Source: Tomocerus qinae (taxonomy: Eukaryota > Arthropoda > Collembola > Entomobryomorpha > Tomoceridae). Taken from it: a DNA stretch of 64,000 nt. The stretch is taken from contig CM034547.1 in the NCBI GenBank assembly GCA_020055645.1, positions 37,179,909 through 37,243,908 of the forward strand, written 5' to 3'. Below are positions 3,001 through 62,541 of the stretch, one piece after another. Every line of letters starts with the position of its first letter. The first letter of the stretch is position 1. The notes beneath the pieces were generated by a model. It had not been told where the DNA came from. It did not search any database and was given only the letters and a program-made list of their open reading frames with translations. Made by a program: the position numbers and the translations under genes.

Positions 3001-6000
3001 GCATACACTATGCAATGACTATAAGTAATGCAGCTAAGTGGTTATGATCTTAAACTGTACCATGATATTGCTAAAGTAAAGGTATGCCATTCCACAGACT
3101 AGAACAATACAATACATAGACTACAATTTCAAAGAAGGTAGCCTTGCCAAGAGCATTTTCGAAATAGAGAAGAGAATATAGGTTACCAGTAACAAGTACA
3201 ACATTAAATACTCTACACTTACCTCATTGAATTGCAGTGTCTACTGACTACTGGATTAAAATTTTTACCACAAGACAACTGCTATACTGTTAATTATATG
3301 ACTAGGCTATACATATTGCAGAATTATAACGTAGGTATTGTTTATAGTAGCCTTATAGCCTTCAATTACGGCTGCCAAGCACAAATGTCCATTAATACAC
3401 CACTTGCAGTTGCAATCAATAACAATATGTTGTATATGCTGTTAGCAGTATAATAAATGACATATATATTTTTCTATTCTCTTAGTAAAAGATTACAATT
3501 TAGATATCAAATTAATACGTCGATACCTTGTGTTTACTCATAAAAATACAAATACATGACTGTGTTTACTGTTGAAGTACTTATAGGTACTCAAGACAGC
3601 TACATTTACTTAACTACATGTTATTATAGGTAATAGTTATATTATTACTACAGAAATACGCAGCGATAACGTAACATAGTACTGATAGAATAAGGCATTC
3701 AGAACAGCTAAGAAAAAGTTACGTTATTCTATGCAGCCAACTGAAGGCTATTGGTAAGCAGTTGATTTTATGTCTCAGCTAATACGTAGTCTGCCCAATC
3801 GAATTCCTTAGCAATTTGTACATAAGTTACACTGACAATGAGTCTAACTAAGTGTAGCGAAGCCAAGTCAACTTTTCATTTGAGGCTTTTCATTTACTTC
3901 CTTCTGATGCAATAGTATTCACTCTTGACTTCATTCTGGCTATCTTTTTAGTCCTAGACACCTCAACACAGTATGTAAGTCATTGCATACTATTGGTGCA
4001 CAGACTAAGCAATCTATGATTAACTTACTAGTTACTATGTATTACTTTATTTTACATATCTTTAGAAATGGATACATAAATATTTGAGACTTTCATCAGT
4101 CAACTTGCTCTGATCTGTAGTTTACTTATTATCACAATACAAGAAAGGAATGGCCGGTCAGATTTATTGTTTTTGTACTTTAGATCGATGCTGTTGATTG
4201 AATGCAAGATACTCATCCATTCATTACATTAACATAGCAGTTATACTGAAACTAAGAAAACGAATGTATACCTATACCTAATGCACATTATTAGTTGCAC
4301 AAACGCTGTAAATACTCGCTCATCCACTTACATTTTATTTGATAAAGATAACCTTAGGTAGGTACTGTAAATAAACTTAGGTACAGCAACTAGATTTATA
4401 GCTATAAATATTCACAGTGTTACTGCCGAAGCACAGAGCATGCTAAAGTTGATACTATTATAAGCAATCATATTTTATATCTATCATTATATTTACACAT
4501 AATTATAATGACCCACAACAGGTCCATAATGCAATTTGGCAAGCAGCAAGCAATTTTCTGGTTTGTTATAGCACAAAAGAAGAATACTTGCTAAAATGAA
4601 TAGTAATTTGTGGATGGGTTGCTTAGAATAGTAATCTCACAAAATGCAACCGAAATGGTGTCGCATGTCGTAGTGTTAGTTTAGATTGGTATAGATTAAA
4701 GTTGTGATATTATATTATTGATATAAAATTACATTTAATGGATAATTAGTCAACTAATGAACAATGCTGCCGCTTGGTCTGGTGCATAGGTACCAATCGA
4801 CAATAATATTTTATAAAACTATCAAACTTGAGTGCGTTTATAAGTTGTAAGCTTAAAACTTTGGAATTTACAGTATTAGTGATGTAGATGATGCAGTATG
4901 GATACGTATGTACTATAAGTTCATCATGTGTAGTTTAAGTTTTTAAATGATACTCTTAGCACTGCAACATATTTATTTCACTATTTCATTCTAGTACTAC
5001 TGCAGTGGCTATTCGCCTTGCCTACCTCACCTGGTTTGACTACATCACCTTCATTTTGTGTTACATAGCTTTAGCACTGTGCTCTACACTATCTTCACTA
5101 TATAGCTACTCTTCCATTGGTAATCACATTACCATTAACAATTTATTAAAAACAATTTACACCAAATATCCAGGTCGTGGTCATTATGTTAACTTGGCTT
5201 TACTTTAGCTTCAGCAGTTTATCCTTACCTTACCTTAACTATTTATTCTATCCTGTAGTCTAGTCTGTAGTGAGTCTGGTTATGATGTGTTACGTGCTTT
5301 CTCGCTGTGTTTTCAGAACATTCCCTTCGTTCTTCATTCACTCCACAATCATTGTTAAGGTACGGTACAGGTACATATTTGTGCAATACATAATACAAAA
5401 GGAATGCACTGCAGCATTTGCCAATTCACTGCAGTTATTCTATATCACTGTATATAGCCATAATATATCTTCAACGTTCACAACTTGGTGTTTGGGTATT
5501 CTTTCTGATACCAACCTGATTTTAAGTTCCACCATGTAGACTTACATTCAGACATAACTAACTACTACTTACTTTCTGTATATCTGTAAACATATATATA
5601 GGGCTGTATAAGAGAATAATTATAGTAGGTTCCCTTCAACTTAAATCTTATACCTACAATACAAACGATTGTCTGCAATGCAAAAGTTTATCTATCAGCA
5701 TGTAAAATAATTTCATACTATCTGAGCCATCATCATGATCGTAAAAAGAGGAAAGTAAAACTATCTAAACCAACAGAGAGCTTTGAATCGAGAATAATTC
5801 TGTTAGTACTTATGAACACGTTCGTTGTGTGTGTGTACTTAGGAATACTTAGAATCACTACAACACAATTACAATAATAACTATACAATACAATAGACTA
5901 CTAACTGAACTTGCTTTAGCGCAACCGACACATTTCATTTCTAATGAAGAGTAACTGGGCCATACTCATCCGTAGCTTATTGTTTAGCTACCTGATTTGG

Positions 6001-36070: not shown

Positions 36071-37821
36071 ATACATGCACTACCATACATTTTTGCAATG
36101 TACATTTTTGCACTCATGCGGGCAAAGGATACTTGTGGGACTACAGGACTACACAATGCAGTGTGCTAGTGTAGAATGCAGATTCTATGTACATGATATT
36201 ATTATAATATTTTAATAAGCCAATAGAGTTTGCAGCAGTCAGGTATATATATTAATATACTATCCAAGTTTGCATTGCACTTGATGTTTTATGAATTTGT
36301 TGGAATATGATCATTTTCGTCTATTCTAAAACTATATGGTTAGCACAGGTGTAAAATCTTTGTTTTATCTGAATCTGTTATAAACTAACACAATTGCGGT
36401 GTATGCCTTGGTGTTTGTATGAAAGTATGGTACAACTATATCAATGATAATGATAATAAAGTTAAATCCACAAGTCCAAACGTTGTAGATAAAGCCACTT
36501 AACTATATCAACTTCGCAAATGTATTTCTGCATTCATAATTTAAATGCTAATATACGTACCTTAACTAGCATTCCAAACTTTCATTACCACAAAGGCTCT
36601 TTAAAAGTAGATATATACTTGTTTCACCTATAGTTTAAAATCATAAATAGTAAGTCCGATTTTGAAAATTTCTTTTGAAAGATAAAATCAAACGTGAGTT
36701 AAAAATCTTCCAGTAATGATCTTCCTTGGTAATTAGGTGATATATGCCAACTAATATGCTATGCATTATGCATAATGCTTCAGAAATGAAACATCTTAAA
36801 AAATTTAAATGGATCCAAAACTTTTCTTTAAAATCTTCCGTTTGGTAGACTGGGGGGTTCTCAAATCTTCCTTTTTAAGATCACAATGGTTTTTTAAAAT
36901 TATTTGTTAGATCTGCATGCATTTTTTAAAAAGTACTTAAAAATGAATTACATGATGATTTTGGTAGTTTTAAGGCACATGATCATTAGAAACTGTTCAG
37001 CCAGTCTGGCCTAGAATTTTAGGCTGGAATGAGTTAAAAAATGAATGTCTGTGCATGTGAAAGCCTTTTTATAAATAAATACACTTTATATATATATATT
37101 TTATCCATTTATTTGCATAGATTAATTTTTTCACTACGTCATAGCTTTAGGCCTACTATATGTATAGGCCAGTAATGTTATAATGGTAAATGTGTCAATA
37201 GGAAAATTTTAAAGACTTGTAGCGCACTGTTGGTTATGCGTCCTGGTGTGGTACGGGTATTCATAATGTTTCATCAATTTGCAGCCTCTAATAAACAAAA
37301 ATCAAAATCAGATTCAATTGGTTTCTAAAGAGTAGTACTTAGGTATCCCAACTCGTAGCTTTAATTAATGCTTATATAATCATTAGTTCAAAATTTATTA
37401 TGTTATTTATATGTAGGATCATTATTTTCGTTGAATAATTGAATAAGACAAAATGAAGTTTATGATGCAGTTTATGAAGTTTATGATGCAGTTTATGAAG
37501 TTTATGATGCAGTTTATGAAGTTTATGATGCAGTCAGTGCAGGTGTGTGGGCACTGGGCACTAGCAATGAGTTTTGGAAACGAAGTCCGAAATCGAAATC
37601 CGAAATTAATTTTATATTTAAAACAATATTAATAAAGTATTATAGGTGTATATTAATGATTTGCATATAGGTAGATTCTTGCATACAAATACAATCCGAG
37701 AATATTGGATTCATTTTTTTGTACAAATATAATAGCTTTCATTTTCATTTTGAGATATTTTAATTTTCATATCAAAATATTAATATTCATAACTCAAAAT
37801 CCAGATGAAAATGAGGAATGC
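36071..37821. other. Intergenic DNA between two transposons
   Basis: AT-rich, with no gene recognised. It contains a short TA run near 37,090-37,100 and the 21-bp tandem repeat at 37,452-37,535. Confidence 0.5.
37452..37535 (+). repeat. Tandem repeat, 21-bp unit, about four copies
   Basis: The unit ATGAAGTTTATGATGCAGTTT is repeated about four times with almost no divergence. Because 21 is a multiple of three, the array reads as KFMMQFM in one frame and EVYDAVY in another. There is no other sign of coding. Confidence 0.85.
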
Positions 37822-37845
37822 TTAAGGAGGGGTGGGGACTTTCAG
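37822..37845 (+). repeat. Left 24-bp TIR of composite element
   Basis: Matches the reverse complement of 42,105-42,128 at 22 of 24 positions. Confidence 0.75.
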
Positions 37846-38479
37846 CGTATATTACTCAGAGCAATGGACTAAACGTACAGGCATGCGGTTTTCTATTTCA
37901 GAATTTACAAAGATTTTTAAGACGAGCATGAAAGCCCAATTTTCAAAAATCATTTTTTAAGTCATCGAAAATTCAATTTGAAAATTTTGATTTTGAGTGG
38001 GGAAATACATGTAAGAAATATATTTTGAATTTTTGTTCACATTTGCAGACACAAATTCAAAAAAAGGTGCCTCATGCTCTCCCTCATTTTTTCCCCTCTT
38101 TTTTATGGCATTTTTGTTATATTTTTACGTTTTTCCAAAATCTTGAAATCATTTTTTAAAGATTTTACATGCAAAATTTTGCTTAAGAACTGCGACAAAA
38201 ATTGCGGGAGGACAGCACGGAGTATTCATAAATAATGGTGGAAATACAACCAACAAACACAATTGTACAATTGTTGATTGTGCATTCCTTTAGAATTACG
38301 AAATGTTATTTCTGACAGTTTCCTATCAGTTTTAATTTTTTAATCATTTAACCCTAAAATTCTTGACCTCGCCCCTCATCAAACTCTACATCTGAAAAGG
38401 ATAAATTGAGGTGGTAAGTATAAGAGAACTAATTCGAGGTGACATATTAATTATATAAATTACTAGCAGCATCAAATTT

Positions 38480-39000
38480 TGCAATTATATTTTCATGTTT
38501 CAGCAGTAACTATCACCGTGGTCAACCAGATTTAGAAGCCAGACTCGACTAGAGTCCAAACCTTCGAAAATATCATTCTGTTTGATCTTGAAATCCTCGT
38601 CAGCTGATACGGGTAAAAAATTGCGAATTAAGATTAATTTCTTATTGCAAATTAGTAGTTTTGAAATCATCATTTTTATAAACTACATCTTGAGTATTAT
38701 AACTAGTTTTTTTGTATTTCAACAGTAATTGTCACCGACTGTGTTTAGTTGCATGAATTGACTGGGAATACAATAAGATCATTGTTTGCAATCCTCAAAA
38801 CGACGTAGAGCATACATAGCAATTCGGGTAAAACAGAATAGTTTATTATTGCATATTACTAGATACGATATTCCTATTTTTAAAACGTGAAGCATGAATA
38901 GTGTAACTCATTATTCATATTTCAGCAGTGTCACCGTGGTCAACTAGAGTAAGAAGTCAGACTCGACAAGACATCAACGTATAGATCAAAATATACAATC
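38480..39000 (+). repeat. Diverged tandem repeat, about 200-220-bp period, about three units
   Basis: Three units start with a pyrimidine tract and TTTCARCAG followed by a TATCACCG- or TGTCACCG-like word (about 38,498, 38,720, 38,924). The first and third share GTGGTCAAC..AGAAG..CAGACTCGAC. Between them, TCGGGTAAAA..TTGCA..TTA.TAG-like sequence also recurs. Each unit looks like an intron end plus a short exon. It lies just 5' of the transposase frame, inside the composite element. Confidence 0.55.
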
Positions 39001-39121
39001 CTCATTTAATTGGCAATATTATTGTATACAAGACAGTCAGACAAGAAGTATTGTGATACTCGTACAAACGTTTGAGTGGGATACCCAAACGGCTACACCC
39101 CGGTAGACGATTTTTTGCACG

Positions 39122-40032
39122 ATGGGTGAAAAATGCGGACATAGACCAATCAAGACTAGAATTAAAAACTTTAAGCCAAAAAAGCTTATTCCTGTTGTGC
39201 TAGAAAATCAAAGCAAAAAAGAGAACGAAATTTGGGACATTAATGGAAGAAGAATGGTTTCAGTCGAATCATTACAAATACTAATCCAAGAAACACAAAA
39301 GAATGTGAAATTTTGCCTCAAAAGTGATTAAAATTTTTTTAAAAGAGACATGGGATTGACTGCGTCGCAGATTTCACATTGCATGTGGCCACTGCGGTCG
39401 GCAGTTTACAGTCTTGATGGACTCTCAAAACAATTCCTTACCAATCAATACTGCCGCAGTTTGGGGAACAATGGAATCTGGTGGGGGCTATGATTCTCTT
39501 TTCGATTTACTAAAAATAATGGATATCCCTCCAATTAATTTTAAATTATACAAATCAAATGAATATAAAATACATGAATACCAAGAACTATCTTTGATTC
39601 AAAATTTAAAAGAAAATGGCAAGGAAGAACTACGATTAGCCCTAGAAGATGAAAAAAACTTTACTATGATGGTATTCCATGTATAGCAATAAGTTGTGAC
39701 GGTAGTTAGGAAAGCTATCGTACGGAGACTCATACAAATCTCTTTCTGGTTGTGCGGTTATCATCGGAGTACGAACTGGTAAACTGTTGCACATCGACAT
39801 TCGAAATAAATGCTGCTACACTTGTTTAGTTCATCCTGATTCTCCGCACAAATGTTTTAAAAACTATAACGGAACAAGCACTTCAATAGAAACAGATGTA
39901 ATTGTCGAAGGATTTCTCAAAAGTGAAGAAATGCATGGGATGTATTACTCACAAATGATAGCTGACCAAGATTCGAGTGTTTTTGTTAATGTACAAGAAT
40001 CCATGAAAACTAAATTTGGATTAAATGAATGA
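39122..40032 (+). pseudogene. Decayed Mutator-like (MULE) transposase
   Basis: Three reading blocks in order resemble the Mutator-like transposase domain widespread in arthropod genomes. The first (39,122-39,331) is the N-terminal basic part, with GRRMVSVESL. The second (39,414-39,686) has LPINTAAVWGTMESGGGYD and the following helix ending near GIPCIAISCDGS, which holds the first catalytic Asp. The third (about 39,740-40,032) reads SYGDSYKSLSG, then VIIGVRTGKLLHIDIRNKC, a Cys-rich CCYTC..H..CFKNY segment, and STSIETDVIVEGFLKSEEMHG followed by ADQDSS, the second acidic position. The expected DGSW is broken by a TAG stop and a frameshift at about 39,700. The frame ends at 40,032, before the catalytic Glu region. 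It therefore cannot make an active enzyme. Confidence 0.75.
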
Positions 40033-40662
40033 CTGAATGACAATTTAATTAATGGAAAAATTATATGGTAAATTGCACTAATGTGTAATGTTATTTGGAT
40101 GTAGAAATGAATGCAATTACTTTATAGACTATATAATTTTTTGATGTAGGATAGAAATTCAAAAATTTTACAGCTCACGAGTGGGATTTGTAATGGTAAT
40201 TACCCCGGAGTGACAATTTAATTGATTCAAAATTTATAATTACTACATTTTTACATTATTTCAAAGTGCATGATAATAATATGTAATGTTATTGGGTAGC
40301 AATCCTAATATGGTGTAAATAATCAATTCATTTTAATTATAATATAATGTTTTATTGTTTAATCATGTGTCATCCAATAGCCAATGTTATCATAAAAATA
40401 CTTACTCCCACTCGTCATCATTTACATTACTTTTGAGTCGCTGATCCCAAAGTCCCACTTATCATCATCAAAAAGTTTTGAATTTGCATTACCAAAAATA
40501 CCCTAATGCTCTAGCAGATGAGAACGATATTTTTTCGGCTTTGCATACCCACAGGTACATTTTTCCCATTTTAGATGTTCCTTTTTCTTTTTCATCGGCA
40601 GATCGCTCTTCGTCAAATTCAGGACAGCGAAAACTTTGTAGACTTGGGTGGATTTTCAAAAA

Positions 40663-41814
40663 TCATTTCATCCGGTGATAGCACAGCATAGTCAGTCGGG
40701 CATCAATAATTTCCGAATGATGACCATTTATGTTTTGCCGGTCGACCCCAAAAAATGCTTGCTTAAATACGACATTCCAACTTTCTGTTTTTTCATATCA
40801 ACGTAAAAATCTTGAATGTCGATTAGTTGACTAGCTTCAACGGTGTTAGCATTCAAATCCAATGACTCAAATATTTTTGTATTTCAGTTGCAACGACCAC
40901 TTTTCCTTTTAGACACGACTTTATATAAGGCAATGTCTGTTAAAATTAATTTGTATTTAATTTCGTGGAAATTTCATGAGTGAGTAGTAGCATAAAATAA
41001 GTAATTGTAATCCCAGTAGATCATTAAATAAAAAAAGATAATCACAAACCTCCTCTAATGTTTTTCCATTAGCTACCATTTCCTTGGTTATCCCTGTTAG
41101 GTTAGTAAAATATTTGCATATTTTCGGATAATTTATAATTGCCCACAGTAAAAGTTTGCCTTTTTCATTGACCACGGCAATTGATGACGCTGCTTGCTTA
41201 TGACTTCCTGGAGTTCTAATTTCTCTACGTCAAAAGAAACCTCCTTAGCTTCAGCGATCAAATTACCTTCGTAAATAAACGGCACCTATTTCCAATTATA
41301 ATAGTGTAATTAAAATCTTGCCAACTCATTAAATATTTTTAAACATCCTCAATTAAACTGACTTACGGTAGGGAAATGAGGTAAGCCACAATTTAAAATT
41401 TTGGGGCCAGGAACTGGTGCTGCACCGAGGTCAATCGGGTTGGAGGGCCTACTCACAGACGTCTCCTGACCCTCATTAGGAGGCATAGCAGCTTTTGGCT
41501 TCTTGTTAATCTCCACGATAAGATTTTTAGCAGAGTTCATTTGGATGCGGCTGCACGGACTACGCTTGACAATTTCAGAAGTCAGGCAGTGGTAAGCATC
41601 TGGTGTCAAATGTTTTGACATTTCCAAAATGTCTTCCTGTTAATTTAAAAAATAAGTATACTATTCTTACTGAATTAACTTTAAGTGATGATTGATGCCT
41701 AAAAGTAATAAATGACTCGGAGAGAAATGAAGTACTTACCACCTCTTTTGGAATATAATATATTGCCTTTTTTGTGGAGGCAAAGATGCACATGTTTTGT
41801 GACTCATTGTTGTA
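40663..41814 (-). pseudogene. Decayed DEDDh 3'-5' exonuclease gene inside the composite transposon
   Basis: Four exons can be joined on the minus strand: 41,814-41,740, 41,636-41,367, 41,285-41,050 and 40,936-40,663, with good donors and acceptors. Exons 1 and 2 are unrecognised (about 115 residues, Pro-rich at the end). Exon 3 begins VPFIYEGNLIAEAKEV and has ExoI SFDVEKLEL (the D-x-E motif), then SSIAVVNEKGKLLLWAI and TNLTGITKEMVANGKTLEEV, typical of DEDDh nucleases. Exon 4 has FESLDLN (ExoII region, with the key Asp lost beside a frameshift) and GHHSEIIDARLTML (ExoIII His..Asp). One-base frameshifts occur in exon 3 and twice in exon 4. Upstream exons and an acidic C-terminal tail to about 40,400 are possible. 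Confidence 0.65.
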
Positions 41815-42104
41815 CTGCAAATTAAATGGTATATTAGGTACAGTATCGCAATATTTTTAAGATATAAAAAACGTTATCTGATACAAGTCTTTAGTACGGT
41901 AGTAATGTACTTACCCAGATATTTATGATTCAGGTCAGATTATCACCAAACAAAATTGAAGTGAGGACAGTTTTTGGCTTGTTTGAAAAGTAAACTAATA
42001 ATAAGCAATACCCTCATTGCGTTTGTTTACGATATTGAGCTAATAATATTGTATCGCAATTTATGCACACCTCGCAAAGTGTCACAGTATTTATCCTTCT
42101 TGCT

Positions 42105-42128
42105 CTGAAAGTTACCACCCCTCCTTAA
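42105..42128 (-). repeat. Right 24-bp TIR of composite element
   Basis: Inverted partner of 37,822-37,845; it ends CCACCCCTCCTTAA on the plus strand. Confidence 0.75.
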
Positions 42129-42926: not shown

Positions 42927-45900
42927 CTATGCCGTGATTAAAGCTTTAATTTCATTTACCATTTTGTTCAGATGGAATACCTTATCGAGAGATGGATCAC
43001 GACTACCAGAGCTACTAACATTATTGTCATCAGTTAAGGTTTGCTGAAACTCCCACCGACGTTCCAAAAGTCTCGAGATGATTGGCTTTTGTAATCCCAT
43101 TCGACACTGACGCACAGTTTGAACCCAATCCAAGTTTCGGCTATTCCATATAATCTGGTTACAATAACAAGAAAAATAATAATATTTTAAATTCATTTAA
43201 TTCAAATCAATTCCAAGAATTAAGCGAATCCACAATAAACGTAAGTGCCTCACACTCTTATCTTATCTAATATTCACAACTGCTGTCATTTGGCTCATTT
43301 ATATACATTTATGTAATATGAATGTCATACATATTGCATGATACCATACCTCGTCGAATGTTCTGTATTTATTGACAAAATGAAAGTCATGAATAACCAT
43401 CACAGTTTTTAAGCTAGTCCGAATTCTGGGAACGATTTTCAAAATGTTCATGCTTATTTTGGTGGCTTGGTACATTGACATTGCAGCTCCAGACGATGAT
43501 GTACAGGATTTTGATGTTTCGTTTGCGTTACCACGAGAAGTTTCAGAGTGTTTATTTTTGGTAGGAGGAGTGTCAGAATTTACCTCCCCAACTATCATTG
43601 TTTCCAACATGTCGCCGTGAGTCATTATAAACCAATAAACGATTCTAAGGGACAGTTGACCTTCAACTTCTTCAAGAAGAAAATCTGCTTTAATACTAGC
43701 TATATCCAGCTCAAGAGAAAAATCCGTTGGTATTTTATCGGACCGTTCTTTCATTGCTGTTTGAACTTGAGTTTGCTTCATCCTGTAAATTATTAGTAAA
43801 CCAAAGGACTCAAATGAGTGAATATTTTAGCCAGTGTAGCTTTAGTTATCAAGCAAAACTAGTCCAAATTACTACTAATATATTGGGAAAGCCAAAATAA
43901 ATGAAGTAATAATAAGAACCGAAAAATTAAAATCTCTTACATAGACTCAATTTGAGTAACCAAACGATGAATAGCTTGATCAAAAATAAAATCATCGAGA
44001 TGACAAAGCCGCTCGGCAGTAGCAAGAAGAAAAGGCTCCAGAACAGCTGCCGGGGAAAGCGATTTTTCAGTACCTTCTTCAGTTTTCCCAGAGAAGACTT
44101 CATTGCCAATTATTGAGGTGATCACTCCAGATCCAGAATTGAGTAGCATATACAAAGTTGTGACGAGAAAATGGACTGGTACATTATTCCGAACAGGAAT
44201 ATACTCAGGTGGTATTAAATCATCCATATCTTCACACACCATAAAAAATCCCCGAGGAATAATAGACAATATTTCGGTCAGCGTATTTAGCAGCTCGATA
44301 ACCCATTGTGTACTAGAGTCATCTTTTACTGTTTTAGTCTTTCCTTTCCCTTTAGTTTTGGTCACGGAAGTACTAGTTGACATTGATGGATCAGAAGTTT
44401 TTGCTGAGCTTGTTTCTGTCGCAAGATACGATTCTGCAAGACTCACACAAAGTGATTGCACACAAGTTTTCAATATCGGCATCAGAATATCTATTAAGCT
44501 TTGAAACCACACTGGGCGACTTTTGCTGTTCCAAATTTGAGTTTTATCCATAACAGTCCAATCTTTTATTGCTGGAAGGATGGGTCTGTACACTTTAACC
44601 ATGTAATCCCGTGGCATTGCATGAGCGACAATGTACAAGGTTGAAGCCGCTGCTAAGTGATTGGGCATCGACTTTGGGAGAGAATGACAACCAGAGTCCA
44701 TACATGAGGCATTTCCACAACGTTTGAATGCTTTACCTTCTAGGAGAAAATCAGTTGATGGTGCAACAACCGTTGGGAATAACGACAGAATGTATCCAGC
44801 AATTTTGCAATCATTCATCGTGAGAACCTTCAAAGACAAAAAACACAAACTATTCAATAATATTTTTATACATGTATTGAAAAGAAGGAAGTATAATTTC
44901 TTTGTTTTTGCAACAATACAACAATGATACAACGTCATTTTCATTAATTTTAAGATACACAACTTTCTCTTTCCATATGCCAACTCCATCTAAAACTTTC
45001 ACCAGTACAAAAAATGTGCATTTAAAATTTTCAGTTGAATTATTTTCATCATAGTTTTATTGAGCTCTCAATTTGCTTATTATTATAATGCGGTATGCAA
45101 GCAAAAAGGAATGGAAAATATTTTGAACTGTTGAAAATATATTTAGCATGGAGAAAGAGAAAGCACACTAGTATTTTCTTATTGTGTGATACATATACAT
45201 AGGAAATTCAAAGGATTCTTGATTTTTGTAAATGGCAAATTAACTCACTTTGTACACTAAAGACCAGTTTGGAGATGGCTGTGCAATCAACAGTTTCAAA
45301 TAGAATAACAGCTCCCAGTCGCAGTAAAATAATCCAATCGGATAAAATTTAGGACAAAGAAGAGATAACATGGACATCCAAGTGGGCTCAGTCAAACGAA
45401 CCTTGTCTTTTTTTCTCGATTCTAACAAGCAACATGATGAAATTCCCCGTCTAAATGTCTAGGACGAATCAAATAATTATATTTCAGTCTCACTCCGCGT
45501 CACGTATTATTACCTCTGTTATACTACGTTGAGTTTCGAGCTCGCATAATTGTAATTCTCTCCTACAGTTATCAGTCGCGACAGGGTATCGGTTTTATTC
45601 AATTATTCCTCATAAAATATTTTACATTCACCGTCTTTAAGTGCTATCAGTTTGGTAACTTGGCTGCATTACCTTGTAAATAATCTCCATTGGACAACCA
45701 ACAATTATCAAAGATGCAGCCAAACAGTGGCACTTCATATGTATGGAGAATATTGTTTTCGAAGAAGCGGGATCAGCCTGTCCGCAAACTGATATCAAAT
45801 CGCTGGAAAGGTAGAACAACAGCTCTTCAATCGTTGCCAGAATATTTATGATATCGCAAACAAATTGAGAATTCGTAGCATCAGTTGGTTGTATCTAATC

Positions 45901-56255: not shown

Positions 56256-57776
56256 AAGAAGAGATGAGCCAACAAATGGTCAAGTCTGCCTTATCGGGCA
56301 ATGGACCAACAAATGATCAAGTCTGCCTTATTTAGCAAAGAGCCGTTAAAACGGTCAAATAAATGTTTTATGATAGTAATAATGTGAAGAATTTTTAGTC
56401 AACTCTATCATATTATATACGAGCCCGTCAATAAACCCTGGCGGTAACAAAAATGTGAATAAATTCACACAAAGGAATCTAGCTTATTTCGAATGGTGGT
56501 TAGGTGATAATTAGATAATTGAAAAATATATTTTTTTTAATAATACCAGCCTCATTTCTATGTTGGCCATCAAGTTTTAGGTCTAGGTTTCAATAACTTC
56601 TGCACACCGTGCATTAGTCATTTTGCAATTTTTCTATACGTTTAATTATATACTTACTCCCGTCCTTGGGTAAAACATTTCGTTTTGACTTACAATGTGA
56701 AACATCCGAAAGCAAAGTAAAATGAATGGCCGGTTTAAAATTATGGGACACAGACTTTGTTTAAATATCCTTTTCTATAGTTGAACAACGCAAGATCGCA
56801 CACCTCATTCGTGTCTACAAATTGACAGGGCAATTTCACGTTCTCCAAATTCAATATTTGTACCTATTTTACTTCGAATATTTCGTTGAAAAAGCAACGA
56901 AAAGTGTACGTGTAAGGTAGCAGATTGAAGGAAGTCGAAAAGTGCTAATAAATTGAAAATAGATTAATATTGACTATCAATATGGATACAAAGTAAAAGT
57001 ACATCAATATTATTAAGAAAAAGTCGAATTTGCTAAGAAATTGTAAATAGACTGATTAAATATCAAAATGAATAGAAATTGAAAGTAAAAGTACATTAAT
57101 TAATTAAAATCAACAGAAATCAAAGTAAATTAAAATAGATTAATAATATTGACCATCCAATTCAAAATAAAGACAAAGTAGATTATTATTCACTATAAAA
57201 ATCTTAATGAAATCAAAGTAAGGTGTCTATCAAAATTAATAGGAATTCGATTAATAACTGTAAAATAGAATATAAATCCGAAATAGATAAATTTCGTTCC
57301 TATCCCACCACTTCCTAGTTTTATTTGCTTTATTCAAATTAGTATATATGCTTTGTATACTAATACTATTTTTGTCTGTCCGTCCGGAAATCGCTGTGTA
57401 TGATAAATTTCGAGAGTAAGTTATATTTCCGTTTTTCAATGCCTTATTATAAAATATTAAGTTTGTTAGAACCAATGTGACATATTTAATACTATCTGGC
57501 AACAATTCAAACTTTTTTTGCCTATTTTCTAATTGGACTATCAAAATCAAGTCAAAGTGAGGGGGCGGTATCTCAAAACCAATGAAATGAACCAATATTC
57601 CAGAATCAATAGAAATAATTTTCAAATAATACCCAGTAGAAATAATCATAAAGCATTGTTTTTGTCAAATTTGGTCATATCCGTCAATCCATTTGAAAAT
57701 TATTGTGGGTACGGACAGACTGAGTGGCTCTATAAGCTCGATAGGAAGACTAAAATAACACCGATATATATTTTAG
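56256..57776. other. AT-rich intergenic DNA with degenerate AAAGTAAAAGTACATTAAT repeats
   Basis: Between about 56,950 and 57,250 the words AAAGTAAAAGTACATYAAT and TAGATTAATATTGAC recur several times as degenerate short repeats. A 132-codon minus-strand frame at 57,251-57,649 has no recognisable domain. Confidence 0.45.
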
Positions 57777-58056
57777 AACTCAAATTCATTCAGAGGACTT
57801 CAAATTTATTCGGAGGAACTCGAATTTATTCAGAGGACTTTAAATTTATTCGGAGGAACTCGAATTTATTCAGAGGACTTCAAATTTATTCGGAGGAACT
57901 CGAATTTATTCAGAGGAACTCGAATTTATTTGAAGATGCTCGAATTTATTCGGAAGTACTCGAATTTTTTTGGAGGAACTCGAATTTATTCGGAAGAACT
58001 CGAATTTATTCGGAGGTACTCGAATTTATTCGGAGGAATTCGAATGGTGCTCCGAC
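57777..58056 (+). repeat. Minisatellite, 20-bp unit, 14 copies
   Basis: The consensus AACTCGAATTTATTCGGAGG is repeated 14 times without length change. In the first half, ACTTCAAATTTATTCGGAGG alternates with AACTCGAATTTATTCAGAGG, suggesting amplification of a 40-bp dimer. The last unit decays. The array stays open in more than one frame because the unit lacks in-phase stops, so apparent 20-residue periodic proteins here are not evidence of a gene. Confidence 0.95.
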
Positions 58057-61139: not shown

Positions 61140-62541
61140 TTATATTCTAGATACATAATCATCCTGCCAAGGTACACTACCGACTGCACTATTGAAGTAA
61201 TTTTTGAACATATCTCGAATGTTAGATGCTTCTACAGTATAATTGTTACTACCTTGTCTCCGGAGGGGAATGCTTACGCTATTTTGTGCCACGTTTCGCC
61301 AACTACCAGGAATTAAACCCTCAGAATCTTCTTGATCAACTGTCAGACCGTTAAAGTCATTGTTAGCGATGAGAAAGTTATGTAAAATAACCGACGTTCG
61401 TACTATCAATTTGGCGAGTTGTAAATTAGCCTCGATTTTTGCATGCAAAATTCGCCATCTCGCTGCCAGTATTCCAAACCCGTTTTCTACAATCCTTCGT
61501 GCTCTACAAATTCTGTAGTTATAAACTTTTTCTTCTTTTCCAAGGAAATTTCCGGGATAAGGTTTTAGAAGATACTTCTTCAAAGGAAATGCATCGTCCC
61601 CAATAAAGATGTAAGGAGCTATAATTCCTGAGCTGATTTCACTGGGGACTGGAAGGCCAAGTGTGCCATTTTCAAGCTTCTTCCCGAATGAAGAATCTTG
61701 GAATATTCCACCGTCGGAAGCAGACCCCATGGCTCCTATATGGACTAACGTAAACTTATACTTGGCATCAACACAACCCAAAAGAACAAGAGAAAAATAT
61801 TCCTTGTAGTTGAAAAAATCGGAACCACTATTTGGGGGAGCTTTGATACGGACGTGCTTGCCATCAAGCGCACCACAACAGTGTGGAAAATTCCACGGTT
61901 CTTCAAATTCATCCGCTATACTTTTCCATTCGAAAGATGTTGGTTTAGGGAGATATTGATCCTGAAATTTTTCACAAATGGCCATCATTACTTTTCGAAC
62001 TGTTACTGACACTGTTGTTGGTGATAGTCGATAGTTTAGTGCGAGGGATATTTGGGAGTTTCCTGTGGCCAGATACCTATAAGTTTATAGGTAGTTATAG
62101 TAGGCTTTTATCGTAGCAATATGGTTATGGTAAGTAATACGGTTTTTTAATATCCAAAATCCTACCGTAGGGTGATTGCAAGTTTCTCCGTTGGTGAAAT
62201 AGGGCAGCGGTGATTCTGTGAATTGAGAAGGTTTGGCAGTATTCCTTCCAGTAACACATCAAAATTGAACTTTTCCATCCTAGAATAAAAGCATACTTTT
62301 ATTTTCCAATTAGCTGTATCAGAACCAACCTTTGAATAGTTTTAATATAACATTATTGTATTAAATACCTGAAATATCTAAAATGATAATGCGGGTCGTA
62401 TGCCAGGTCACTGATGAGAGTGTGTTCGCCAAGAGACAATCGCTTTTCAAATATAGGTCTTATATACATCGAACGTTTTCTTATTTTTTTACGCTTCCAA
62501 ATTAAGTATGCAATGATTTTTCTACGCAATGATGCCTTCAT
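61140..62541 (-). CDS. Harbinger (HARBI1-type) DDE transposase, intact
   Basis: Exons 62,541-62,369, 62,279-62,166 and 62,076-61,140 join in phase into 407 residues with no stop or frameshift. Exon 2 ends and exon 3 begins in the family hallmark LAITLRYLATG. The putative catalytic triad is Asp167 (GALDGKHVRI), Asp256 (FIGDDAFPL) and Glu293 (RRIVENGFGIL), in the usual spacing. The helix-turn-helix region precedes it (LALNYRLSPTTVSVTVRKV). The start ATG at 62,541 has A at -3. It would cut and paste the surrounding element at a 3-bp target together with the MADF protein encoded head-on. An intact frame in a window full of dead elements suggests recent arrival or domestication; the linked MADF gene favours an element. 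Confidence 0.9.

What the first reader, a model, noticed from the sequence alone, without database searches (positions are those of the whole stretch)
37822..42128. A Mutator-like transposon that carries a DEDDh exonuclease gene
Seen: one 24-bp TIR pair (22/24) encloses a plus-strand Mutator-like transposase remnant and a convergent minus-strand, intron-containing gene with ExoI SFDVEKLEL and ExoIII HHSEIIDAR motifs. Known: DEDDh nucleases are host RNA/DNA trimming enzymes, and I know of no standard animal MULE that encodes one. Inference: this is either a new two-gene family in which the nuclease processes ends or RNA, or a captured host gene. Both genes are broken here, so intact copies elsewhere would be informative.
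Basis: partly seen in the sequence, partly recalled or inferred. Interest (0 to 1): 0.75.

Follow-up and report, generated by a model that had tools for sequence, protein, structure and literature searches.

The report
Young jumping gene carrying broken exonuclease
This stretch is a recently multiplied but crippled copy of a Kolobok-type jumping gene that carries a gene for a nucleic-acid-trimming enzyme; intact-looking versions of that gene sit in related elements of the same genome and beside unrelated P-type jumping genes, so it may be a helper gene traded between transposons.

Summary
Window 37822-42128 is one mobile element with TIRs, a transposase remnant and a convergent, intron-containing DEDDh exonuclease gene. 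It inserts at TTAA, with no 9-11-bp duplication: a Kolobok, not a Mutator-like element. Kolobok with DEDDh (KolobokD) was described in 2022. All 20 other copies fetched are full length, about 4.31 kb, 99.6-99.8% alike. All 21 share a transposase stop and lack its C-terminal part; 20 of 21 (one unreadable) have lost the exonuclease's ExoII aspartate. So this is a young non-autonomous family, presumably moved in trans. A 6.0-kb relative with the same ends shows what was lost: the transposase's end and a lambda-exonuclease-like (YqaJ) domain. In the genome, 40 of 109 detected transposase loci have transposase, YqaJ and convergent exonuclease in one order; two diverged families read in full have open frames. 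The exonuclease is under purifying selection (dN/dS about 0.1). New here, as far as searched: both nucleases in one element, closest match SDN1/ISG20 rather than TREX, and the same exonuclease gene convergent with P-element-type transposases at nine loci (two read).

The parts
37822..42128 (.). Whole element, TTAA to TTAA; internally deleted, non-autonomous Kolobok
37822..37845 (+). Left TIR; starts with target-site TTAA then GG
42105..42128 (-). Right TIR (22 of 24 to the left one), ends with TTAA
39107..39328 (+). Transposase N-terminal frame (MGEKCGHRPIKTRIKN...); no Pfam match of its own; continuous with the transposase frame in L043 and L047
39360..39683 (+). Transposase frame, PF20700 positions 45-142
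39680..39709 (+). First catalytic motif CDGS followed by TAG: present in 21 of 21 copies, absent in 4 of 4 sister copies
39706..40029 (+). Transposase frame, PF20700 positions 163-264, including the CCHC and DQDSS motifs; ends before the CxxH and E part
   Evidence: motifs named by comparison
40024..40145 (.). Deletion region: about 1.8 kb present in the 6-kb relative L047 (transposase C-terminus and YqaJ nuclease) is missing here
41740..41793 (-). Exonuclease exon 1 (predicted by eye)
41367..41636 (-). Exonuclease exon 2 (predicted by eye)
41050..41285 (-). Exonuclease exon 3, ExoI motif FDVE; one base fewer than in 19 of 21 copies (shared with L017)
40402..40936 (-). Exonuclease exon 4, ExoII (aspartate replaced by Tyr) and ExoIII HHSEIIDAR; frame broken

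Best explanation
The window holds a non-autonomous, internally deleted Kolobok transposon of the DEDDh-carrying (KolobokD) kind. Shown: TTAA-bounded ends, many near-identical copies, transposase cut short and stopped, exonuclease disabled, and a longer relative with the same ends. Inferred: the family spread recently because a transposase made by a complete relative recognises its TIRs and moves it in trans into TTAA sites. Complete relatives encode three enzymes: a DDE transposase, a YqaJ (lambda-exonuclease-like PD-(D/E)XK) nuclease downstream of it, and, from a convergent spliced gene on the other strand, a DEDDh 3'-5' exonuclease closest to SDN1/ISG20. The exonuclease is a standing part, not a passenger: in the two families read in full it keeps its catalytic residues, exon layout and position although the catalytic parts are only 38% identical, and in the pair tested it is as constrained as the transposase. 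What it acts on is inferred. Because the same gene lies beside P-type transposases, whose transposition chemistry differs, I think its job is not tied to Kolobok end chemistry. The two leading roles are trimming of DNA ends or gaps left by transposition, and destruction of host small RNAs or transcripts that silence the element; I hold these about equally likely.
For: TTAA ends in 21 of 21 copies with different flanks, and a single TTAA between head-to-tail copies at L022 and L025. Mean substitution identity of each copy to the others 0.996-0.998. Stop in the first catalytic motif 21 of 21, absent in 4 of 4 sister copies; ExoII Asp to Tyr in 24 of 25 copies of the two subfamilies, 1 unreadable. 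Six-kb relative L047: full PF20700 1-357 (E 5.3e-73), YqaJ (3.1e-16), convergent exonuclease. L048 and L049: PF20700 and PF09588 matches without stops and spliced open exonuclease of 358 and 344 aa between TTAA TIRs. Co-location: 40 of 109 transposase loci have both nucleases, order right in 40 of 40; 84 of 109 have a convergent exonuclease, chance about 0.002 per locus. dN/dS 0.097 over 248 exonuclease codons, bootstrap 0-0.17; pN 0.167 against 0.151 for the transposase. PDB profile search: SDN1 4.6e-10, ISG20L2 1.7e-8, ISG20 2.9e-7. P-type link.
Against: No transposition or enzyme assay. L047, the longer relative with these TIRs, has a frame change in its transposase and in its exonuclease, and no fully intact copy with exactly these TIRs was read. 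In L048 and L049 the joints between transposase and YqaJ frames (introns or frame changes) were not worked out, and the first exon with a start codon of the L048 exonuclease was not found. Synonymous sites are near saturation (pS 0.69), so dN/dS is a rough bound; exon 3 alone gave an unbounded dS. Full-length exonucleases gave no RNase_T hit in Pfam; the DEDDh assignment rests on motifs and the PDB searches. Twenty-two of 109 transposase loci have YqaJ but no detected exonuclease, 3 have neither, so the gene is not needed by every Kolobok here. The amplified window family has a dead exonuclease, so it is not needed in cis. Many of the 84 pairings are copies of one family, not independent events.
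Confidence: 0.92

Rival explanations
1. The exonuclease works on DNA made during transposition: it trims 3' ends or the donor gap, alone or with the YqaJ nuclease, to steer repair so that the element is copied back.
For: Paired with a lambda-exonuclease-like nuclease at 40 of 109 transposase loci. Kojima and Bao suggest degradation of DNA intermediates from the 3' end.
Against: Closest solved relatives are SDN1, ISG20L2 and ISG20, known mainly as RNA exonucleases (recalled). The P-type carriers use a different transposase; whether they have a YqaJ gene was not tested.
Confidence: 0.45
2. The exonuclease is a counter-defence: it degrades small RNAs or transcripts by which the host silences transposons, which would explain why unrelated transposons carry it.
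For: Best match is a small-RNA-degrading nuclease. Same gene beside transposases of two superfamilies. Amplification of a family whose own copy is dead is compatible with a product acting in trans, but equally with no role.
Against: Identity to SDN1 is only 20-28%, so its substrate cannot be carried over. No expression or small-RNA data.
Confidence: 0.4
3. A genuine Mutator-like element with a recently captured host gene.
For: Pfam names PF20700 'Mutator-like'. The gene has introns, as a captured host gene would.
Against: TTAA target sites, Kolobok signatures in relatives, and 84 of 109 loci in the same arrangement with exonuclease identities down to 37%: the association is old.
Confidence: 0.02
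4. In the amplified window family itself the exonuclease is only a remnant that survived the internal deletion and has no bearing on its success (compatible with the best explanation).
For: ExoII Asp replaced in 24 of 25 copies (1 unreadable) and the predicted spliced frame stopped in 25 of 25.
Against: Concerns this derivative only; the pair of longer families tested keeps it under selection.
Confidence: 0.85

Closest known systems
KolobokD (Kojima and Bao 2022, PMC9587614; abstract, passages and section 10 seen, section 11 as a passage)
   Same: Kolobok transposase plus a DEDDh exonuclease; TTAA target; CCHC zinc finger after the first D; reported from arthropods among others.
   Different: The main text assigns DEDDh and lambda-type nuclease to KolobokD and KolobokE 'respectively'; here both lie in one element. 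Their exonuclease resembled exuperantia, TREX and ERI1; this one matches SDN1/ISG20L2/ISG20 in PDB. Their alignments (supplement) were not available here, so direct kinship is untested and KolobokD may itself carry both.
KolobokE (same paper)
   Same: Lambda-exonuclease-like PD-(D/E)XK nuclease downstream of the transposase (L047, L048, L049 and families without detected exonuclease).
   Different: L047, L048 and L049 also carry a convergent DEDDh gene; the window copy has lost the YqaJ nuclease.
P-superfamily transposons (PF21788/PF21789 transposase)
   Same: Nine loci have a homologous exonuclease gene convergent with a P-type transposase (two read, seven from search tables).
   Different: Different transposase; no paper linking P elements with such a gene turned up.
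Mutator/MuDR elements
   Same: Pfam family name; distant relation of the transposases (shared C/DxxH motif, PMC9587614).
SDN1 / ISG20 / ISG20L2 exonucleases
   Same: DEDDh family by profile search; D, E, D, H, D positions kept in L048 and L049.
   Different: Transposon-borne, own N-terminal and Cys-rich C-terminal parts; 20-28% identity to SDN1.

Membership tests
Kolobok superfamily | TTAA 4-bp target site duplication | tested here: met
   21 of 21 copies TTAA-bounded with different flanks; one TTAA at head-to-tail junctions at L022 and L025. No true empty site was compared
Kolobok superfamily | 5'-RR ... YY-3' termini inside TTAA | tested here: met
   GG...CC in the window family, also L048 and L049
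Kolobok superfamily | DDE transposase with C/DxxH signature | tested here: met
   Met in L047, L048, L049: DGxW, DxDSS, CVNH, NxxE. In the window copy the CxxH and E part is deleted
KolobokP/E/D/5 group | CCHC zinc finger after the first D | tested here: met
   (L043, L047, L048, L049)
KolobokD | DEDDh exonuclease gene in the element | tested here: met
   dead in the window copy
KolobokD | Exonuclease resembling exuperantia/TREX/ERI1 | tested here: inconclusive
   PDB searches up to E 10 list SDN1, ISG20L2, ISG20, DnaQ, PAN2, PolC (and one eIF2 gamma chain), none of those three; method differs from theirs
KolobokD | Groups with published KolobokD transposases | not testable with these tools
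KolobokE | PD-(D/E)XK nuclease downstream of the transposase | tested here: met
   PF09588 in L047 and genome-wide; found in 9 of 10 frames given, one of them below the cut-off. Absent from the window copy
Mutator/MuDR | 9-11-bp target duplication | tested here: not met
P superfamily (second carriers L051, L052) | P-type transposase domains | tested here: met
   PF21788 3.2e-19 in L052; PF21789 2.3e-11 and 1.5e-11 in L052 and L051
P superfamily (second carriers L051, L052) | TIR pair and target duplication enclosing both genes | tested here: inconclusive
   One end found (CATAGACTAAG); the other end could not be read

The most novel reading that the evidence does not exclude
The DEDDh exonuclease is a mobile accessory gene traded between DNA-transposon superfamilies: it sits convergent to the transposase in Kolobok elements (with a second, lambda-type nuclease) and in P-type elements, and its superfamily-independent job is to disarm host small-RNA silencing.
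Probability: 0.3. Interest if true: 0.85.

Novelty: new variant of a known kind. Interest (0 to 1): 0.52.

Why it matters
Many eukaryotic DNA transposons are described as a transposase and its ends, with accessory genes in some lineages. Here an exonuclease gene is kept under selection in Kolobok families of one genome, combined with a second nuclease of another fold, and found beside an unrelated transposase family. That makes it a natural test of what accessory nucleases do for transposons: repair steering or counter-defence. Near-identical copies show that the elements were active recently, so the open L048- and L049-type copies could be tested directly.

Tried and rejected
Rejected: a 9-11-bp duplication and MULE membership; recent capture of a host gene; same-TIR copies without exonuclease (none among the 25 short copies and L047 that I read). 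A scan of viral contigs with the L048 transposase found no relative: 16 pattern matches, none confirmed. Pfam did not recognise the two full-length exonucleases; exon-3 pieces gave RNase_T at E 0.059 and 0.02, below the cut-off. Rooting the exonuclease tree with SDN1 put the P-type gene beside L047 and L048 (87/98), which hints at Kolobok-to-P transfer, but the outgroup branch is very long, so I make no claim of direction. Structure prediction of the L048 transposase was never accepted. Paper searches gave listings only; nothing in them was used.
Full report
Check of the observation. The ends at 37822 and 42128 match as inverted repeats over 22 of the first 24 bases. The plus strand has two frames that hit PF20700, named 'Mutator-like transposase' in Pfam, and the minus strand has the ExoI and ExoIII motifs with splice-like sites between them.

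It is one of many copies. A search of the window's own genome (334 Mb) with the left 279 bases returned 40 scored matches at 99-100% out of 313 candidates. I fetched 20 further copies; 20 of 20 are full length, 4303-4316 bp. Mean substitution identity of each of the 21 to the others is 0.996-0.998. The right end gave 40 scored matches of 66 candidates. Of the 40 left ends, 34 pair with a listed right end 4301-4320 bp away, one at 10,454 bp, and five have no listed partner. Four of those five are the sister-subfamily copies L041-L044; the fifth was not fetched. Such low divergence means a recent burst; I did not date it.

Target site and family. All 21 copies start TTAAGGAGGGGT and end ACCCCTCCTTAA, with different flanks and no longer duplication that I could see by eye. 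At L022 and L025 two elements stand head to tail with a single TTAA between them, as expected if a second copy entered the TTAA at the edge of the first. TTAA duplication with 5'-RR ends is the mark of Kolobok (PMC9587614: abstract, passages and section 10 seen, the KolobokD section as a passage). Relatives show the other Kolobok signatures: DGxW, CCHC finger, DxDSS, CVNH, NxxE. That paper reports KolobokD, Kolobok with a DEDDh exonuclease, in mollusks, arthropods and cnidarians. A search for 'KolobokD' in the held library finds only that paper.

What is broken. All 21 copies have a stop right after the first catalytic motif DGS, and all align end to end with the window copy, which lacks the C-terminal part of the transposase. 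In the exonuclease, the ExoII aspartate is tyrosine in 24 of 25 copies of two subfamilies (20 of 21 and 4 of 4; the other could not be read), and the predicted spliced frame meets a stop in 25 of 25. The sister subfamily of four fetched copies (L041-L044, 94.6-94.8% alike to the window element, about 4.26 kb) lacks the same part. Its transposase N-terminus is open over 308 residues in L041 and L043, 323 in L042, and split in L044.

What was lost. L047, with the same TIRs, is 6.0 kb. It matches the window element at 96% and 94% on either side of an extra 1.8 kb that encodes the rest of the transposase (PF20700 1-357, E 5.3e-73) and a YqaJ domain (E 3.1e-16), a lambda-exonuclease-like PD-(D/E)XK nuclease. 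Its exonuclease keeps the ExoII aspartate, but both its transposase and its exonuclease have a frame change.

Relatives with open frames. L048 (6.28 kb) and L049 (6.23 kb) have their own TTAA TIRs (14 and 15 of 16 bases matching). Their PF20700 and PF09588 stretches have no stops: in L048 a 567-aa transposase frame followed by a 354-aa YqaJ frame, in L049 a 373-aa frame followed by a 532-aa frame with the transposase end and YqaJ. How these frames are joined (intron or frame change) I did not work out. Each has a convergent exonuclease gene whose exons join at GT-AG sites to open frames of 358 residues (first exon with a start codon not found) and 344 residues (from ATG). The D, E, D, H and D of the DEDDh set are present in both. 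Their catalytic parts are 38% identical. L050 is another deletion derivative with a transposase N-terminus and the exonuclease, in which I found no TTAA TIR pair.

How general is the pairing. PF20700 gives 121 matches (114 of 245 candidates scored), 109 loci after merging. One 80-residue exonuclease exon gives 150 matches (150 of 178 candidates scored), 140 loci. Eighty-four of 109 transposase loci have an exonuclease downstream on the opposite strand within 9 kb; none has one in another arrangement; 25 have none. Many of the 84 are copies of one family, so this is not 84 independent events, but the exonuclease identities run from 100% down to 37%. Adding YqaJ (80 loci): 40 loci have all three in the order transposase, YqaJ, convergent exonuclease; 44 have exonuclease without YqaJ; 22 have YqaJ without exonuclease; 3 have neither. 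Counts are lower bounds, because only the best candidates are scored. Eighteen of 80 YqaJ loci had no transposase partner; 3 of those 18 have a convergent exonuclease. In a transposase tree of 17 rows, drawn with a midpoint root, the five exonuclease carriers fall in one group of six (99/97) whose sixth row, L035, has a shortened YqaJ match; the other eleven rows, without detected exonuclease, form the rest; L031 was dropped for want of a suitable frame.

Selection. Between L049 and L050, 248 exonuclease codons give pN 0.167, pS 0.694, dN/dS 0.097 (bootstrap 0-0.17). The transposase N-terminus of L046 (a copy with the same exonuclease type as L050) against L049, 261 codons, gives pN 0.151 and dN/dS 0.068. 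Synonymous sites are near saturation, so the ratios are rough, but the exonuclease is held about as tightly as the transposase. This is one pair of families.

Kind of exonuclease. A profile of three of these proteins against PDB sequences finds SDN1 (4.6e-10), ISG20L2 (1.7e-8), ISG20 (2.9e-7), then DnaQ, PAN2 and PolC; no TREX, ERI1 or exuperantia appears up to E 10. KolobokD exonucleases were described as similar to exuperantia, TREX and ERI1. Whether these are the same gene lineage could not be tested.

A second superfamily. Fifty-six of the 140 exonuclease loci had no PF20700 partner. Five of them are element copies I had fetched (L009, L014, L021, L023, L050). I read two of the rest, L051 and L052. 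In both the exonuclease is convergent with a long frame that is a P-element-type transposase (PF21788 3.2e-19 in L052; PF21789 2.3e-11 and 1.5e-11 in L052 and L051). The two loci, on different contigs, are 93-96% alike from an end CATAGACTAAG through the exonuclease into the transposase frame, apart from small gaps and one 62-base insertion in L051, with different flanks outside that end. The end lies 805-810 bp outside the exonuclease exon at four of four members of this spacing class, and it occurs 146 times in the genome (up to 2 mismatches) against 1 in the control. Of 140 exonuclease loci, 10 lie within 9 kb of one of 150 PF21788 matches (150 of 232 candidates scored). Nine are convergent, in three spacing classes (1870-1871 bp three times, 2127-2223 four times, 3892-3896 twice), and none of the nine has a detected Kolobok transposase within 9 kb; the tenth looks like a P-type insertion inside a Kolobok element. 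About 1.1 would be expected by chance in any orientation.

Literature. Searches for Kolobok with YqaJ and for P superfamily with Kolobok and exonuclease found no paper. P element with DEDDh and P-element with THAP and exonuclease domain each list one paper on the RNase H-like superfamily (PMC3985635), seen only as a listing. The supplement of PMC9587614 and Repbase were not available, so the combination may be known to specialists.

Verdict. The window copy is an ordinary dead derivative of a known kind. Its longer relatives look like a new variant, a Kolobok with two nucleases besides the transposase, and the same exonuclease gene beside P-type transposases is, as far as these searches go, unreported and the most interesting result.

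Noticed in passing
window 61140-62012 (-): 290-aa frame with a DDE_Tnp_4 domain (PF13359, E 7.3e-30), HARBI1-like by recall.
   Followed up: partly
window 57776-58045: 20-bp tandem array, 13.5 copies; its translation resembles by eye a longer array in L045 at about 4046-4972. Similarity not tested.
   Followed up: no
window 37453-37534: Perfect 21-bp tandem repeat, 3.9 copies, about 290 bp left of the element.
   Followed up: no
window 43937-44989 (-): 350-aa frame without Pfam match at E 0.001, perhaps part of a host gene.
   Followed up: partly
G000 C7:810943-818094: Six P-type GBD matches in a row at about 1.36-kb steps next to L051: a tandem array of a piece of the P-type element.
   Followed up: no
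G000, 146 places (first 100 listed): The P-type end CATAGACTAAGTATTCATAG occurs far more often than the carriers found: perhaps a non-autonomous family using this end.
   Followed up: no
G000 C5:12113113-12120524: P-type transposase match lying between transposase and exonuclease of a Kolobok copy.
   Followed up: partly
L050 and 16 further loci (41% exon matches with a 90-aa frame, no PF20700 partner): Probably a second deletion derivative that keeps the exonuclease and drops most of the transposase and YqaJ; only L050 was read, and its exonuclease has a frame break.
   Followed up: partly
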